Positions 29,893 through 34,599 of a stretch of DNA of 64,000 nucleotides are shown in pieces (position 1 is the first letter of the stretch; every line of letters begins with the position of its first letter). The stretch covers positions 1-64,000 of the forward strand of contig CALUVB010000023.1 of NCBI GenBank assembly GCA_944324115.1. Reading direction: 5' to 3'. Made by a program: the position numbers and the translations under genes. The stretch comes from an uncultured Elusimicrobiales bacterium (lineage in GTDB: Bacteria; Elusimicrobiota; Elusimicrobia; Elusimicrobiales; Elusimicrobiaceae). The notes under the pieces are model-generated. The model saw nothing but the letters and a program-made list of their open reading frames with translations. It made no database searches and was not told where the DNA came from.

Positions 29893-30954
29893 TCAAGTAA
29901 AGCTCTCCAAATAGGTATGCAATCCTTCCGCCCGGGCTTGCTTGACCCCTTCTTCGTACAAGCTCTCCGCTTCCTCTACGCGGCCCAACGCATACAGCAC
30001 TTGGCCTAAAGAAAGCTTGGTCAAAATCTGCCCACGGATCTCATCAGAATGGTCAAACAATTCCCGCGCCGCCTCCAAATCCGCCAGCGCCTGCGGCAAC
30101 TTGTTGCGGCGTTTTAAAATATCGGCGCGCCCCCATTTGACAAAGCCCAAATCCACTTTGTCTCCAATGCCGCTGTAAAGAACATCAGCTTTATTATAAT
30201 GACGCAAAGCCTCGTCGTATTTCCCCTGCTGGCGCAGGCCGTTGGCCATGCCGCAATTGGTATAGGCCTTGCCGAACAAATCTTCTGTTTTATTAAAAAT
30301 TTTTTCAGCCAATTTATAATTTTTGACACAATCATCAATCTTGCCCGCGATGCGGCTGATACCCGCCAGACCGCAATACCCATAGGCCAAATTGATTTCA
30401 TCGCCGGCTTTTTTAGCATATTTAATAGCCAGATTAAACTGCGCAATTCCTTCCTCCAGCTGGCCTTGTAAACGGTAAATGCCTCCTTTGGCCCAGCAAA
30501 TAAAACTCATACCCGCCCAATCTTTTTGCTGTGTATAAGCCGCCAGTACGGCGTCTAACAAATCCAACGCTTCTTCCAGCCGCCCCCAAGCGCGCAAAGC
30601 CATGCCCATTTCCTGCATGGCGCGCACCACATACTCGTCATATTCCAGTTCGCGGGCCATTTTTAATGCGTCATCTGCCAGCTCATACGCTGCAGAAGAT
30701 ACGCCTAAAGTACGATAGCAAGCCGCCATAGCCAGCAGAATATCCATGCGTTCTTCGGCATTGAGGGTTACGTTGAGCGCTTTAGCATAGGTTTCTATAG
30801 CCGGCTGGAAAGAGCCCAGCAAGCGGTATGCTTCTCCCAATAAAAACAAGGCGGAAGCGTCTAAATTTTTTTTATTTTTCAAAGCGGACAGCACTTTAGA
30901 AGGTTTTTCATCTAGCCAGCACTGTAAGGTATCGAAATCTAATTTTTCTTTCAT
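29893..30954 (-). CDS. Cytoplasmic TPR-repeat protein
   Basis: This 353-residue protein is made almost entirely of tetratricopeptide repeats of ~40 residues. Examples are FLLGEAYRLLGSFQPAIETYAKAL, IYRLQGQLEEGIAQFNLAIKYA and YGYCGLAGISRIAGKIDDCVKNYKLAEKIF, each quoted only as repeat markers at about residues 32, 170 and 205. There is no signal peptide or catalytic domain. It is a likely protein-protein scaffold, similar in style to the TPR regulators of the Rap/MalT class. It is the last gene of the operon that runs from 34599; a restriction-modification pair sits directly before it. Its start lacks a close Shine-Dalgarno (GGAG is 14 nt away). Confidence 0.84.
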   Translation of the reverse strand: MKEKLDFDTLQCWLDEKPSKVLSALKNKKNLDASALFLLGEAYRLLGSFQPAIETYAKALNVTLNAEERMDILLAMAACYRTLGVSSAAYELADDALKMARELEYDEYVVRAMQEMGMALRAWGRLEEALDLLDAVLAAYTQQKDWAGMSFICWAKGGIYRLQGQLEEGIAQFNLAIKYAKKAGDEINLAYGYCGLAGISRIAGKIDDCVKNYKLAEKIFNKTEDLFGKAYTNCGMANGLRQQGKYDEALRHYNKADVLYSGIGDKVDLGFVKWGRADILKRRNKLPQALADLEAARELFDHSDEIRGQILTKLSLGQVLYALGRVEEAESLYEEGVKQARAEGLHTYLESFT

Positions 30955-30960
30955 AAGAAA

Positions 30961-31749
30961 CTATTTTCTCCAATGTCCAAAATGATTCCTAGCTTTTCCA
31001 TACACTAATACCGATGGATTAAAAATCTTATAATCCGATATTTTATCAAACAACAAAGCCATCGCTCTCTGCTTTAACATATTAAAGCGAATTTCTCTAT
31101 AATGAAGTTTACTATCATTACGCATTTCTAACTCAGCTAAATTTTTCCCTCGATATCTAAATAAGACTTTCTGGTCATCCATTTGTCCAGGCAAACGTGC
31201 TTTAGAGTTAATTATTTCTATAGCATCTGACATAACTTGAGAGACCTCTTCCCCCAAAAACACATAATATTTTTGCTTATCACAAATTGTTAAATAATTC
31301 ACCTCTCCTGCATTAAACATCGCTTTGCTTATAAAAGCTTTTAAACGCGTTTTATCTTTCAGTTTTTCAACCAAAATCCTCATGGGTATTTGTAGTTTCA
31401 TCTTGTATTTCTGTTTATCTTTAAGATAATCTTCATATTCTACAGGAAAAGATTCTATACAATCTTCCAAAAGTTTACCCATTCCGTTCATTACCCTAAA
31501 AAGTTCATCATGCTGAAATCTATTCAAACCATATAAAAAGATCTGCCATTTTTTATTCCCACTTTTCACAGAATGAGAATCTCCTGAAGGATCGATCACA
31601 TCCTTCTTAGCTTTAGGATCATTTCTATAATCATTATCTAAACCGATACATTTAGCAAAACGCAAAGCATCTTGATGTCCTGCTAGTCTATACATACGAG
31701 CAGCTTCGGAAGTAGAGGCCCTTGTTTTTTTTATCTTGGCATTTTCCAT
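30961..31749 (-). CDS. Putative type II restriction endonuclease
   Basis: This 262-residue protein is unrecognised at family level. It follows the adenine methyltransferase with a 19-bp overlap, the usual place for the cognate nuclease. Two short regions could supply a PD-(D/E)xK-like site: GDSHSVKSGNKKWQIF (~residue 55) and GKNLAELEMRNDSKLHYREI (~215). The base composition is clearly more AT-rich than the flanking genes. No other function suggests itself, but the nuclease call is from context, not from a proven motif. The recognition site is unknown. Confidence 0.6.
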   Translation of the reverse strand: MENAKIKKTRASTSEAARMYRLAGHQDALRFAKCIGLDNDYRNDPKAKKDVIDPSGDSHSVKSGNKKWQIFLYGLNRFQHDELFRVMNGMGKLLEDCIESFPVEYEDYLKDKQKYKMKLQIPMRILVEKLKDKTRLKAFISKAMFNAGEVNYLTICDKQKYYVFLGEEVSQVMSDAIEIINSKARLPGQMDDQKVLFRYRGKNLAELEMRNDSKLHYREIRFNMLKQRAMALLFDKISDYKIFNPSVLVYGKARNHFGHWRK

Positions 31750-32657
31750 ATAATCACCTCGTGAGATTCTTTGACATAAGAACTGTGATTAAGATGTTCA
31801 CGATTTGTTCCAATTCTTGTATCTCCCTGTCCAAAGGTATATTGCCAACTTGGAAAAATCATATCAAAGTCTTTGTAATATTCTCGTATATTAGAACAAT
31901 TATTATAAGACAAAATAAAACCGCCTTTGTGAGATTTTAGCAAGTCCCTTAGAAGCTCGTGTTTAAAACCTTTATGATGAATAGGAAAATTACGATGAGG
32001 ATACATTCCAACAAACATTTTACTATCTCCTCCCAAAAAATAAGGAGGGTCGCAATACAGAAAATCATTTGAGTGTTCTTGAATCACTTTAGCAAAATCT
32101 CCTTCCTCCACCTTGAGTTTAGGAACATTAAAATTAGCAACCTTATGTAAAATTGCAGCATAACGCTTAGGTTGCAAATATACACTAGAAGGAGAACCTA
32201 AAAAATGAGGACCATAAGACATATTATGATTGAAATAATAAACAGCAGCTAATTCTAACCCCTTTAGCTTTTTTCCCCCTTCCCAATGCGCTTTCATTAA
32301 TGATTTAACCCTTTTATACTCATCTTTAGTAGGAGAAAACTGGGATAAACGTTTAGCTAAAAGAGCAGGAGAATTTATTTGATACTTCCAATAATTTGTC
32401 AATATATCAAAAATATCAAAACCCAATACGGGAACTCCCAATTCTTTTGCAATCGCAATTTCTACAGCTCCACCACCGAAAAAAGGAGAAACAACCCTTT
32501 TTAAGTTATTAGGAAGCAAATTTATAATATATCCAACTGCAAGACTTTTTCCTCCGGCATAACGCAGAGGAGAACCCAAATACCTTTTATATCTAGAAGG
32601 ATTAGAAGGACTTTGGAGTCTATGTAAAAAGTTTTCTTTTTCTTTTGTTATATTCAT
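31731..32657 (-). CDS. D12-class N6-adenine DNA methyltransferase
   Basis: This 308-residue enzyme has the D12/Dam-type order of motifs. SPLRYAGGKS near residue 28 (motif X) is followed by VSPFFGGGAVEIAIAK near 56 (SAM-binding motif I) and FLYCDPPYFLGG near 198, where DPPY is the catalytic motif of N6-adenine methylation. It would protect host DNA against the nuclease encoded just downstream. AT-rich composition and position inside an operon of normal composition point to horizontal gain. There is no clear Shine-Dalgarno before the ATG. Confidence 0.88.
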   Translation of the reverse strand: MNITKEKENFLHRLQSPSNPSRYKRYLGSPLRYAGGKSLAVGYIINLLPNNLKRVVSPFFGGGAVEIAIAKELGVPVLGFDIFDILTNYWKYQINSPALLAKRLSQFSPTKDEYKRVKSLMKAHWEGGKKLKGLELAAVYYFNHNMSYGPHFLGSPSSVYLQPKRYAAILHKVANFNVPKLKVEEGDFAKVIQEHSNDFLYCDPPYFLGGDSKMFVGMYPHRNFPIHHKGFKHELLRDLLKSHKGGFILSYNNCSNIREYYKDFDMIFPSWQYTFGQGDTRIGTNREHLNHSSYVKESHEVIIWKMPR

Positions 32658-32673
32658 AGAAGAAACACCTAGG

Positions 32674-33039
32674 CTAAATTTTTAAATATTTTTTAATTTC
32701 CTCCAATGTAGCAGCCAAATCATACGGTTTGTCAATAAAATAATCCGCCCCCGCCTCTTGGGCGCGGGTTTTACTTTCGCGGTCGGTCAGCGTAGACATA
32801 ATTACCACGGGGATACGCCAGGTAGTTTCTCCGGTTTTGAGCATTTTGCACACGTCAAACCCGCTCAGTTTGGGCAGCATTAAATCCAGCAGCACCAAAT
32901 CCGGCTTCTCCCGCCGCACGCAGGCCACTCCCTGCACGCCGTCTGCCGCCCAAACGGTTTGCACGCCTTCCAGCTCCAGCGCTCCTTTCAAAGCGCCGGC
33001 CAATGTTTTGGAATCTTCTATTAAAACCACTTTTTTCAT
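32674..33039 (-). CDS. Single-domain response regulator (CheY-like receiver)
   Basis: This 121-residue receiver domain is complete and has no output domain. Seen are the acidic pocket IEDSKT at the N-terminus, the phosphoacceptor Asp52 in LVLLDLMLPKLSG, the conserved Ser/Thr in VVIMSTLTD and Lys104 in YFIDKPYD. It would pass phosphate-dependent signals by protein contact. It overlaps the upstream carbonic-anhydrase-like gene by 4 bp. No histidine kinase is linked. The next downstream original gene was perhaps the TPR protein, a possible partner, before the restriction-modification pair inserted. Confidence 0.9.
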   Translation of the reverse strand: MKKVVLIEDSKTLAGALKGALELEGVQTVWAADGVQGVACVRREKPDLVLLDLMLPKLSGFDVCKMLKTGETTWRIPVVIMSTLTDRESKTRAQEAGADYFIDKPYDLAATLEEIKKYLKI

Positions 33040-33554
33040 GATAACTCTTCTGCCGCGTCTTTAAATTTTTTAGCCAGGAGTACATATGCGCGGGCATTCT
33101 GCAAGATACCATTCATTTCGTCTTCCGTCAATTCCCGCACCACTTTGGCAGGCACCCCCATCACCAAAGACCCCGCCGGAATATTTTTCCCCGCGGTTAC
33201 CACCGCCCCGGCGCCGATTAAACAGTTGGGGCCTATTTCGCTCTCCAGCACCACGGCATTCATGCCAATCAAACAATTATCGCCTATTTTGCTGCCATGG
33301 ACTATTGCTCCGTGCCCTACACTGACGCCCTTGCCAATTACAGCCGGACAATCATAATTTACATGTACGCAGGCATTGTCCTGTATATTGCTGTTTTCTC
33401 CAATTTGAATTTCCGCTATATCCCCCCGAAGCACGGCTCCCGGCCATACGGACACATCTTCTCCCAGCGTCACCGCGCCGCATACTACTGCAGTTTTATG
33501 GATAAAAACGCTCGGAGCCGTTTTGGGCACCAGTTCATCAATTCTTTCCTTCAT
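33036..33554 (-). CDS. Gamma-carbonic-anhydrase-like hexapeptide protein
   Basis: This 172-residue protein is a left-handed beta-helix with repeated hexapeptides (VSVWPGAVLRGD, IGENSNIQDNACVH, IGDNCLIGMNAV). Zinc ligand positions appear kept: His in ACVHVNYD and the two His of VSVGHGAIVHG. Homologs (YrdA/PaaY/CaiE type) may be carbonic anhydrases or thioesterase-like enzymes, so the activity is unsettled. It overlaps both neighbours (17 bp with the YbhN-like gene, 4 bp with the receiver gene). Confidence 0.87.
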   Translation of the reverse strand: MKERIDELVPKTAPSVFIHKTAVVCGAVTLGEDVSVWPGAVLRGDIAEIQIGENSNIQDNACVHVNYDCPAVIGKGVSVGHGAIVHGSKIGDNCLIGMNAVVLESEIGPNCLIGAGAVVTAGKNIPAGSLVMGVPAKVVRELTEDEMNGILQNARAYVLLAKKFKDAAEELS

Positions 33555-34599
33555 AAAAGGGCACCTCTTTTAATTTTTTGGATTGGCGCGGCGTCTCAGA
33601 AAGCTGCAGCCCCCAATAAATAAAAATACTCACTATCCCGGGCAAAACATAATACACCACCCGGTAAATCAACGTCGCCATCAGAGCGGAATCCCAATCT
33701 ATCCCCATTTGCGCAAAAACCGCCGTCATAGCCAGTTCCATGGCGCCTAAACCGCCCGGAAGCACAGGAATCAACGTAGTTACCATACCTACGGCAAACC
33801 CCGCCACCAAACTGCCCGCCGAAATATGCACGCCTACTGCGCGGAACGCAAAATACAACACTAAAATCGTAAACAACCAGTCCTCACAGACATACACAAT
33901 GGTGCGGGTTAGCTTGTTTTTTTTCTTATGGATTAACTCTATCCCTTCATCTAACTGATCTACAAAATTATCATAGCGCCCCTTCGGAATAAGCGCCCGG
34001 AATACATGAAACAGAAATTTATTAAGCCAGCGGAATATTTTGCGCACCCAGCGGGAACGCCATTCATTATTGAACAAAAAAGCCGTAATACACACACACA
34101 CCGCGCACATAATAATAATGAGAAAGAAATTCTTTAAGATTTGCATGGTGGTGGCGGAGGAATTGAACAGCATCAACACCGAACCTTGCAAAATAATCAT
34201 AGCCAACACAAAATACAAAAGCACGCTGATGACGATACTGGCCGTAACGCACATGCCAAAAGGTACTCGCCGGCGGTTAAGCAAATGGGCCCGCAGTGCA
34301 AAACCGCTCACCCCCAAAGAAGAAACCACATAGTTCACTGTCGTAGACACCAAGGCGATACCAATAGCCGCCCCTTTATTAATGCGCCGGCCCATAATGC
34401 GCAGCACTTCATAAAGGCTTAACCCCATTGCCACATAAATCAACACAGCAGAAGCTAAAGAAAGAAAGAGATATTTTATTTGCACTTCCTGCCAAATCTT
34501 AACGATGCTGTCTTTGGCTTGATAGACCAGCAGGGCAATAATCCCCACAGAGAGCAATATCCCTAGAAAATAAACTAAAAATTTGACGCTTTTTTTCAT
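33538..34599 (-). CDS. YbhN/UPF0104-type membrane protein (LPG-synthase-like)
   Basis: This 353-residue protein has about eight hydrophobic helices. It shows signatures of the lysylphosphatidylglycerol synthase membrane domain family: GLSLYEVLRIMG near 60, SSLGVSGFALRAHLLNRR near 92 and PVLPGGLGAMELAMTAVF near 285. Related proteins flip or modify lipids, but those without the C-terminal aminoacyltransferase domain, as here, have unproven roles. First gene of the operon ending at 29893. There is no clear Shine-Dalgarno. Confidence 0.82.
   Translation of the reverse strand: MKKSVKFLVYFLGILLSVGIIALLVYQAKDSIVKIWQEVQIKYLFLSLASAVLIYVAMGLSLYEVLRIMGRRINKGAAIGIALVSTTVNYVVSSLGVSGFALRAHLLNRRRVPFGMCVTASIVISVLLYFVLAMIILQGSVLMLFNSSATTMQILKNFFLIIIMCAVCVCITAFLFNNEWRSRWVRKIFRWLNKFLFHVFRALIPKGRYDNFVDQLDEGIELIHKKKNKLTRTIVYVCEDWLFTILVLYFAFRAVGVHISAGSLVAGFAVGMVTTLIPVLPGGLGAMELAMTAVFAQMGIDWDSALMATLIYRVVYYVLPGIVSIFIYWGLQLSETPRQSKKLKEVPFYEGKN

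What the first reader, a model, noticed from the sequence alone, without database searches (positions are those of the whole stretch)
30961..32657. AT-rich restriction-modification pair inserted in an operon
A D12 adenine methyltransferase and an overlapping unknown nuclease gene lie between a CheY-like gene and a TPR gene that are otherwise in one run of overlapping genes. They differ in base composition, and the nuclease has no recognised family, so it may be a new PD-(D/E)xK variant. The insertion may also separate a receiver from its TPR partner.
Basis: partly seen in the sequence, partly recalled or inferred. Interest (0 to 1): 0.5.

Follow-up and report, generated by a model that had tools for sequence, protein, structure and literature searches.

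The report
Newly acquired type II restriction-modification pair
A little-studied bacterium has picked up a two-gene system that marks its own DNA and probably cuts foreign DNA, and the cutting half belongs to an unnamed enzyme family predicted to resemble the laboratory enzymes HinP1I and MspI.

Summary
The finding holds. M (31731-32657, 308 aa, D12 adenine methyltransferase) and R (30961-31749, 262 aa) overlap by 19 bp, have 33% G+C in a 47% window, and sit between a receiver gene and a TPR gene that are direct neighbours (gap 2-105 bp) in 57 of 57 same-genus genomes with a readable junction. R has no significant match in Pfam, NCBIfam, PADLOC, PHROGs or PDB sequences, but 74 relatives were found across bacteria and archaea; 70 of 74 lie beside a relative of this M, the other four (one clade) beside a cytosine-5 methyltransferase. 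AlphaFold models of R and of a distant homologue (pLDDT 91.6, 92.6; overlapping alignments) both have HinP1I (Z 12.3, 13.4) and MspI (8.7, 8.4) as best solved matches. R is most likely the nuclease of a type II R-M system with a HinP1I/MspI-like PD-(D/E)XK fold and perhaps a non-canonical D...SxK centre. In the tree it groups with copies from candidate phyla, not with other Elusimicrobiota copies: lateral transfer. The recognition site could not be inferred; cleavage and methylation are untested.

The parts
31731..32657 (-). M gene: D12-class N6-adenine DNA methyltransferase, 308 aa; 16 bp downstream of the receiver stop codon
32040..32051 (-). M motif IV DPPY (residues 203-206), invariant in the 6 aligned sequences
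30961..31749 (-). R gene: putative restriction endonuclease, 262 aa, HinP1I/MspI-like PD-(D/E)XK fold (predicted)
31543..31608 (-). R residues 48-69, candidate catalytic block with K48, D50, D53, S60, K62, G64, Q69, each invariant in 60 of 60 aligned sequences
31731..31749 (-). 19-bp overlap of M end and R start (translational coupling, inferred); the same 19-bp overlap in 9 of 45 measured relatives, any overlap in 32 of 45
32658..32673 (-). left junction: 16 bp between receiver stop and M start; the hairpin of the closest relatives is missing here
30955..30960 (-). right junction: 6 bp between R stop and TPR start
32674..33039 (-). flank: receiver-domain (CheY-like) gene, 95% identical in the nearest relatives
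29893..30954 (-). flank: TPR protein gene, 94% identical in the nearest relatives

Best explanation
A two-gene type II restriction-modification system acquired by lateral transfer. M methylates adenine in a short site on the host chromosome; R, a HinP1I/MspI-like nuclease, cuts the same site when it is unmethylated, so unmodified phage or plasmid DNA is destroyed. M is translated first and R by coupling through the overlap, so protection precedes cutting. The pair entered the spacer after the receiver gene, where it probably uses that operon's transcript. Shown: the pair, its conservation as a unit, the insertion, foreign composition and tree placement. Predicted: R's fold. Inferred: cleavage, methylation, shared site, expression route.
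For: M is a D12 MTase matching a type II cluster. R relatives: 74 loci in genome contigs; 70 of 74 have an M relative (40-68% identity per piece, three cut by contig ends) next to R, 68 of them upstream on the same strand. M and R distances co-vary over 47 pairs (Mantel r 0.80; 0 of 2000 permutations as high), so they travel as a unit. In the four remaining loci (one clade, 100/100) R lies convergent with a C5-cytosine MTase (4 of 4 by reading; two of them confirmed in libraries): the nuclease stays, the protecting enzyme changes chemistry, as expected of an R gene. Fold: HinP1I Z 12.3 (4.0 A, 197 aligned), MspI 8.7, HhaI 7.8, next row 4.5; model of an m5C-partnered homologue: HinP1I 13.4 (3.3 A, 192), MspI 8.4, next NhoI 6.0, HhaI not among the rows shown. 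Insertion and transfer. In 54 of 58 loci the R stretch with the 930 bp before it is more AT-rich than the flanks.
Against: No sequence-level link of R to any known nuclease; plain Foldseek against PDB gave no hit at E <= 0.001 for either model, so the fold assignment rests on the re-alignment, and the two models share much of their alignments. The catalytic residues are not settled: no acidic residue stands at the expected (D/E)xK place if S60-x-K62 is that motif. No strong site avoidance specific to carriers was found, which is neutral for a recent arrival but gives no support. Expression and methylation are unseen.
Confidence: 0.87

Rival explanations
1. M is the only working part: R is inactive or decaying here and the locus is effectively a solitary adenine methylase kept for gene regulation or as protection against a similar incoming system.
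For: In the same phylum five of nine credible carrier genomes, all of one family, have a broken R reading frame (assembly errors not excluded), and in two of them (G302, G278) M is still intact.
Against: R in the window is a full 262 aa frame holding every residue that is invariant in 60 sequences, overlapping M by 19 bp.
Confidence: 0.07
2. R is not the cutting enzyme of an R-M system but an accessory DNA-binding or repair protein tied to the methylase, or a base-excising restriction enzyme of the PabI kind.
For: No sequence relation to any nuclease. Base-excising restriction enzymes exist (abstract of PMC10273834); that they pair with adenine methylases is recalled.
Against: Both models find HinP1I and MspI well ahead of the other rows; a partner swap from adenine to cytosine methylase fits a site-specific cutter.
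Confidence: 0.05
3. Assembly artefact: a foreign piece mis-joined into the operon.
For: Draft genome of 25 contigs; strong composition break.
Against: Both flanks are genus-typical (receiver 95%, TPR 94% identical to relatives) and the joints fall between reading frames, 16 and 6 bp from the neighbours.
Confidence: 0.03

Closest known systems
HinP1I (and MspI, HhaI) type IIP restriction endonucleases
   Same: Predicted fold of R: HinP1I Z 12.3/13.4, MspI 8.7/8.4 for two homologues, HhaI 7.8 for one; size 262 aa against 241-262 for the solved chains
   Different: No detectable sequence similarity. Partner is a D12 adenine methylase in 70 of 74 loci, where HinP1I, MspI and HhaI go with cytosine-5 methylases (recalled). 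Putative centre D...SxK against D...QxK (HinP1I) and D...NxK (MspI), both recalled; the passage seen in PMC4081073 instead lists MspI as having N in place of the lysine.
PADLOC cluster PDLC03281 (type II methyltransferase)
   Same: M matches over nearly its full length, E 3.2e-105
   Different: The named enzyme and site behind the cluster are not given; no PADLOC nuclease model matches R
D12 MTases 7m6b and DpnM (2dpm)
   Same: Same class; best solved sequence relatives of M (3.3e-15 and 1.1e-11)
   Different: Distant; specificity cannot be carried over
Cyanophage methylases annotated Dam or DNA methyltransferase (S-PM2, S-P4, Sf-CH11, S-SCSM2R)
   Same: 42-47% identical to M
   Different: In the three regions with visible, annotated upstream genes M overlaps an unrelated 176-188 aa gene annotated endonuclease or GIY-YIG, not R

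Membership tests
Type II restriction-modification system | Separate, adjacent M and R genes inherited together | tested here: met
   70 of 74 loci paired with an M relative; Mantel r 0.80 over 47 pairs
Type II restriction-modification system | M is a DNA methyltransferase by family | tested here: met
   PF02086 E 4.8e-33, above cutoff; PDLC03281 E 3.2e-105; DPPY present
Type II restriction-modification system | R cuts, and M protects, the same site | not testable with these tools
   needs enzyme assays; site-avoidance counts gave no answer
PD-(D/E)XK restriction endonuclease, HinP1I/MspI group | Shared fold over most of the chain | tested here: met
   Predicted models only: HinP1I Z 12.3 (197 aligned, target 247) and 13.4 (192); next unrelated group 4.5 and 6.0; plain Foldseek not significant
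PD-(D/E)XK restriction endonuclease, HinP1I/MspI group | Canonical D...(D/E)xK motif | tested here: inconclusive
   Invariant D50, D53, S60, K62, Q69 in 60 of 60; no acidic residue at position 60; residue-level superposition not available
PD-(D/E)XK restriction endonuclease, HinP1I/MspI group | Metal-dependent site-specific cleavage | not testable with these tools
   biochemistry needed
D12 N6-adenine methyltransferase | PF02086 domain with motif IV DPPY | tested here: met
PabI-type base-excision restriction enzyme | HALFPIPE fold | tested here: inconclusive
   re-align only Foldseek's best 1000 chains; HinP1I/MspI fit well

The most novel reading that the evidence does not exclude
R founds a new, widespread family of HinP1I/MspI-fold restriction enzymes (26 phylum-level labels among the tree rows) with a non-acidic SxK active site, normally guarded by an adenine methylase but guarded in a mainly marine clade by an unrelated cytosine methylase while keeping its target, so that one nuclease family is blocked by either of two methyl marks.
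Probability: 0.4. Interest if true: 0.52.

Novelty: new variant of a known kind. Interest (0 to 1): 0.4.

Why it matters
It gives a likely function and fold to an unnamed protein family present in many uncultivated lineages, adds a candidate family of type II enzymes (new specificities are of practical use), and offers a natural case in which one nuclease lineage goes with protecting methylases of two different chemistries, a direct test of how R and M specificities co-evolve. For the host it is an ordinary two-gene defence system, found in one genome of its genus.

Tried and rejected
Recognition site by avoidance: 4-base palindromes and XYNYX sites were counted in 333 kb of the host and 380 kb of a relative without the pair, in 63 of the 74 carrier loci (479 kb), and in stretches of four carrier genomes of the phylum (G112, G150, G298, and G302 whose R is broken) against unmatched genomes with neighbouring handles, whose family I did not check. 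TCGA, GATC and CTAG are rare in host and relative alike. Pooled GATC is lowest (0.49), but G112 and G150, with intact pairs, do not avoid it (0.84, 1.07; control 0.72). TGNCA is somewhat low in G112 and G150 (0.61, 0.53; control 0.69) but not in the pool (0.94). Site left open.

Target duplication: GTTTCTT occurs at both junctions, but 1031 of 5000 shuffles share as long a word; rejected.

Vehicles: R relatives in plasmid and phage records: none at E <= 0.01 with the window protein or the marine homologue; IMG/VR none with the window protein, 2 loci with the family alignment, both beside M relatives. I did not look for integrases or transposases.

Weak family matches of R relatives treated as chance: Tower (3 of 7, best E 0.085), PycC Pycsar cyclase (1 of 7, E 0.0033), others. 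One weak phylum hit (G257, E 6.9e-4) lies inside a 522-aa frame beside a receiver-like gene, with no M; treated as chance.

PabI-type enzyme considered and set aside on fold. Papers: the listings (72, 88 and 89 empty) showed no description of this R family; that is the limit of the statement. PMC10273834: outline and abstract. PMC7337904, PMC4081073, PMC11257099: passages. HinP1I and MspI motifs and MTase partners are recalled. Zheng et al. 2016 is known only from a reference list.

Dropped rows: alignment A3 holds 55 R frames from the 74-locus set plus the window and four phylum rows; broken or short frames, a frame with unread bases, and loci doubling the G-handle ones (L069, L080, L102, L109) were left out. 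L070 and L072 (one genome, near-identical) both count among the 74. One search used 47 pairs. One search used 58 loci, including loci without an adjacent upstream M (L120 and the marine clade) and loci doubling G-handle ones. One genus genome with the receiver gene (G067, at a contig edge) was not fetched. Foldseek and VIA lists show 50 rows at most.

Full report
Observation. On the - strand the window reads: LPG-synthase-like membrane protein (33538-34599), hexapeptide protein (33036-33554), receiver (32674-33039), M (31731-32657), R (30961-31749), TPR protein (29893-30954). M and R overlap by 19 bp, 16 bp lie between the receiver stop and M, and 6 bp between R and TPR. M is a D12 adenine methyltransferase. 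R has no significant match in Pfam, NCBIfam, PADLOC, PHROGs or PDB sequences. The pair has 33.2% G+C in a 47.0% window and GC3 of 0.22-0.27 against 0.48-0.57 in six nearby genes.

Insertion. Of 66 genomes of the genus, 60 hold the receiver gene at E <= 1e-25. Besides the window I examined 58 of these loci; in 57 the receiver and TPR genes lie on one contig, 2-105 bp apart, without any M or R match; the 58th stops at a contig end. The phylum search found R in 10 of 340 genomes, in this genus only in the window's own (genomes without a match are mostly not listed row by row). So the pair is an insertion into a conserved neighbourhood, specific to this genome among those held. Fourteen of 57 spacers hold a terminator-like hairpin, among them the two closest relatives (95% identical receiver). 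Folding beats the shuffles for L028 (0 of 200 as good) and L031 (2 of 200), not for L030 (39 of 200) nor for the window's left junction (184 of 200). Hence M-R can ride on the receiver transcript (inference), and receiver and TPR were not necessarily co-transcribed before.

Family. In 70 of 74 a relative of this M is next to R: 68 upstream on the same strand, one convergent (L120), one rearranged and broken (L124). M and R overlap in 32 of 45 measured pairs. Distances of M and R correlate (Mantel r 0.80, highest of 2000 permutations 0.26). In 54 of 58 loci R with the 930 bp before it is more AT-rich than the flanks (mean -6.8 points), so the composition break is a trait of the family. The R tree scatters phyla: Chloroflexota need 6 changes, Bacteroidota 5, Pseudomonadota 5 (the tool warns that this alone is no proof of transfer). 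The window's R groups with a Taylorbacteria and a Parcubacteria copy (99/87), not with the other Elusimicrobiota copies.

Partner exchange. The four loci without M (L125-L128: three Pelagibacterales, one Verrucomicrobia) form one clade (100/100) at 34-37% identity to the window protein. In all four a C5-cytosine DNA methyltransferase lies convergent, 4-131 bp after R; two of the four were confirmed in family libraries, the other two read by eye. Conversely, cyanophage relatives of M (42-47%) overlap an unrelated small upstream gene annotated endonuclease or GIY-YIG in three of three regions where annotated upstream genes are visible, of five fetched; a profile of R does not match those genes. 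Both halves are thus modular. If specificity was kept through the exchange, the site contains both A and C (inference).

Fold and mechanism of R. AlphaFold2 with 60 sequences gave mean pLDDT 91.6, pTM 0.88. Foldseek on PDB gave nothing at E <= 0.001, but re-alignment of its best chains put HinP1I first (Z 12.3, rmsd 4.0 A, 197 aligned), then MspI (8.7) and HhaI (7.8), then a drop to 4.5. A second model, of a homologue that goes with the cytosine methylase (pLDDT 92.6, 44 sequences, largely the same family members), repeated it: HinP1I 13.4 (3.3 A, 192 aligned), MspI 8.4, then NhoI and Eco15I near 6; HhaI was not among the rows shown. The best viral structural match is an uncharacterized protein of Synechococcus phage S-CAM22 (E 2.4e-6). 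Twenty-one residues are invariant in 60 sequences, among them K48, D50, D53, S60, K62, G64, Q69, E149, E206, E208, R210. The most likely centre is D50 or D53 with S60-x-K62, a PD-(D/E)XK variant without the second acidic residue; D50-x18-Q69 would match the HinP1I spacing as I recall it but lacks the lysine. This is open. [quoted passage not shown] R may do likewise (inference).

Decay. Nine carriers are credible in the phylum (ten hits less G257). R is broken in five, all of one family: G267, G278, G249, G288 and G302; in G278 and G302 M is intact. Assembly errors cannot be excluded. One carrier (G150) has M followed by two different intact R genes in tandem. Loss of R before M is what one expects when the nuclease is costly (inference).

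Site. Not determined. Words rare in the host (TCGA 0.18, GATC 0.42, CTAG 0.44) are rare in a relative without the pair too (0.11, 0.32, 0.46), and no word is strongly avoided in carriers only.

Verdict. A recently acquired type II R-M system with an unnamed but widespread nuclease of predicted HinP1I/MspI fold. The kind is known; the nuclease family, its possible active-site variant and the partner exchange are the new parts.

Noticed in passing
L120:1955-6119 (Candidatus Portnoybacteria): The M relative carries an N-terminal LexA-type S24 peptidase domain fused to the D12 methylase, and the next gene fuses a LexA DNA-binding domain, an S24 peptidase and an N6 methylase: possibly modification genes under direct SOS control.
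   Followed up: partly
L160-L198 (stretches of host G000 and relative G054): TCGA is strongly under-represented in both (observed/expected 0.18 and 0.11), CATG only in G054 (0.12 against 0.96 in the host), pointing to other past or present restriction systems in the genus.
   Followed up: partly
L221-L223 (G298, 18 kb): AGCT, GGCC and GTAC are absent and GATC (2) and TCGA (1) nearly absent in 18 kb of this genome, suggesting several restriction systems at once.
   Followed up: no
L018:1172-3660 (G150): M followed by two different intact R genes in tandem, each about 55% identical to the window R.
   Followed up: partly
L245:3001-5468 (IMG/VR contig): R, an M relative and a second, distant D12 methylase in a row on a contig held in the viral collection.
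   Followed up: no
L200-L202 (cyanophages): Methylases related to M overlap a small upstream gene annotated as GIY-YIG or endonuclease: a possible phage-borne cutting and marking unit.
   Followed up: partly
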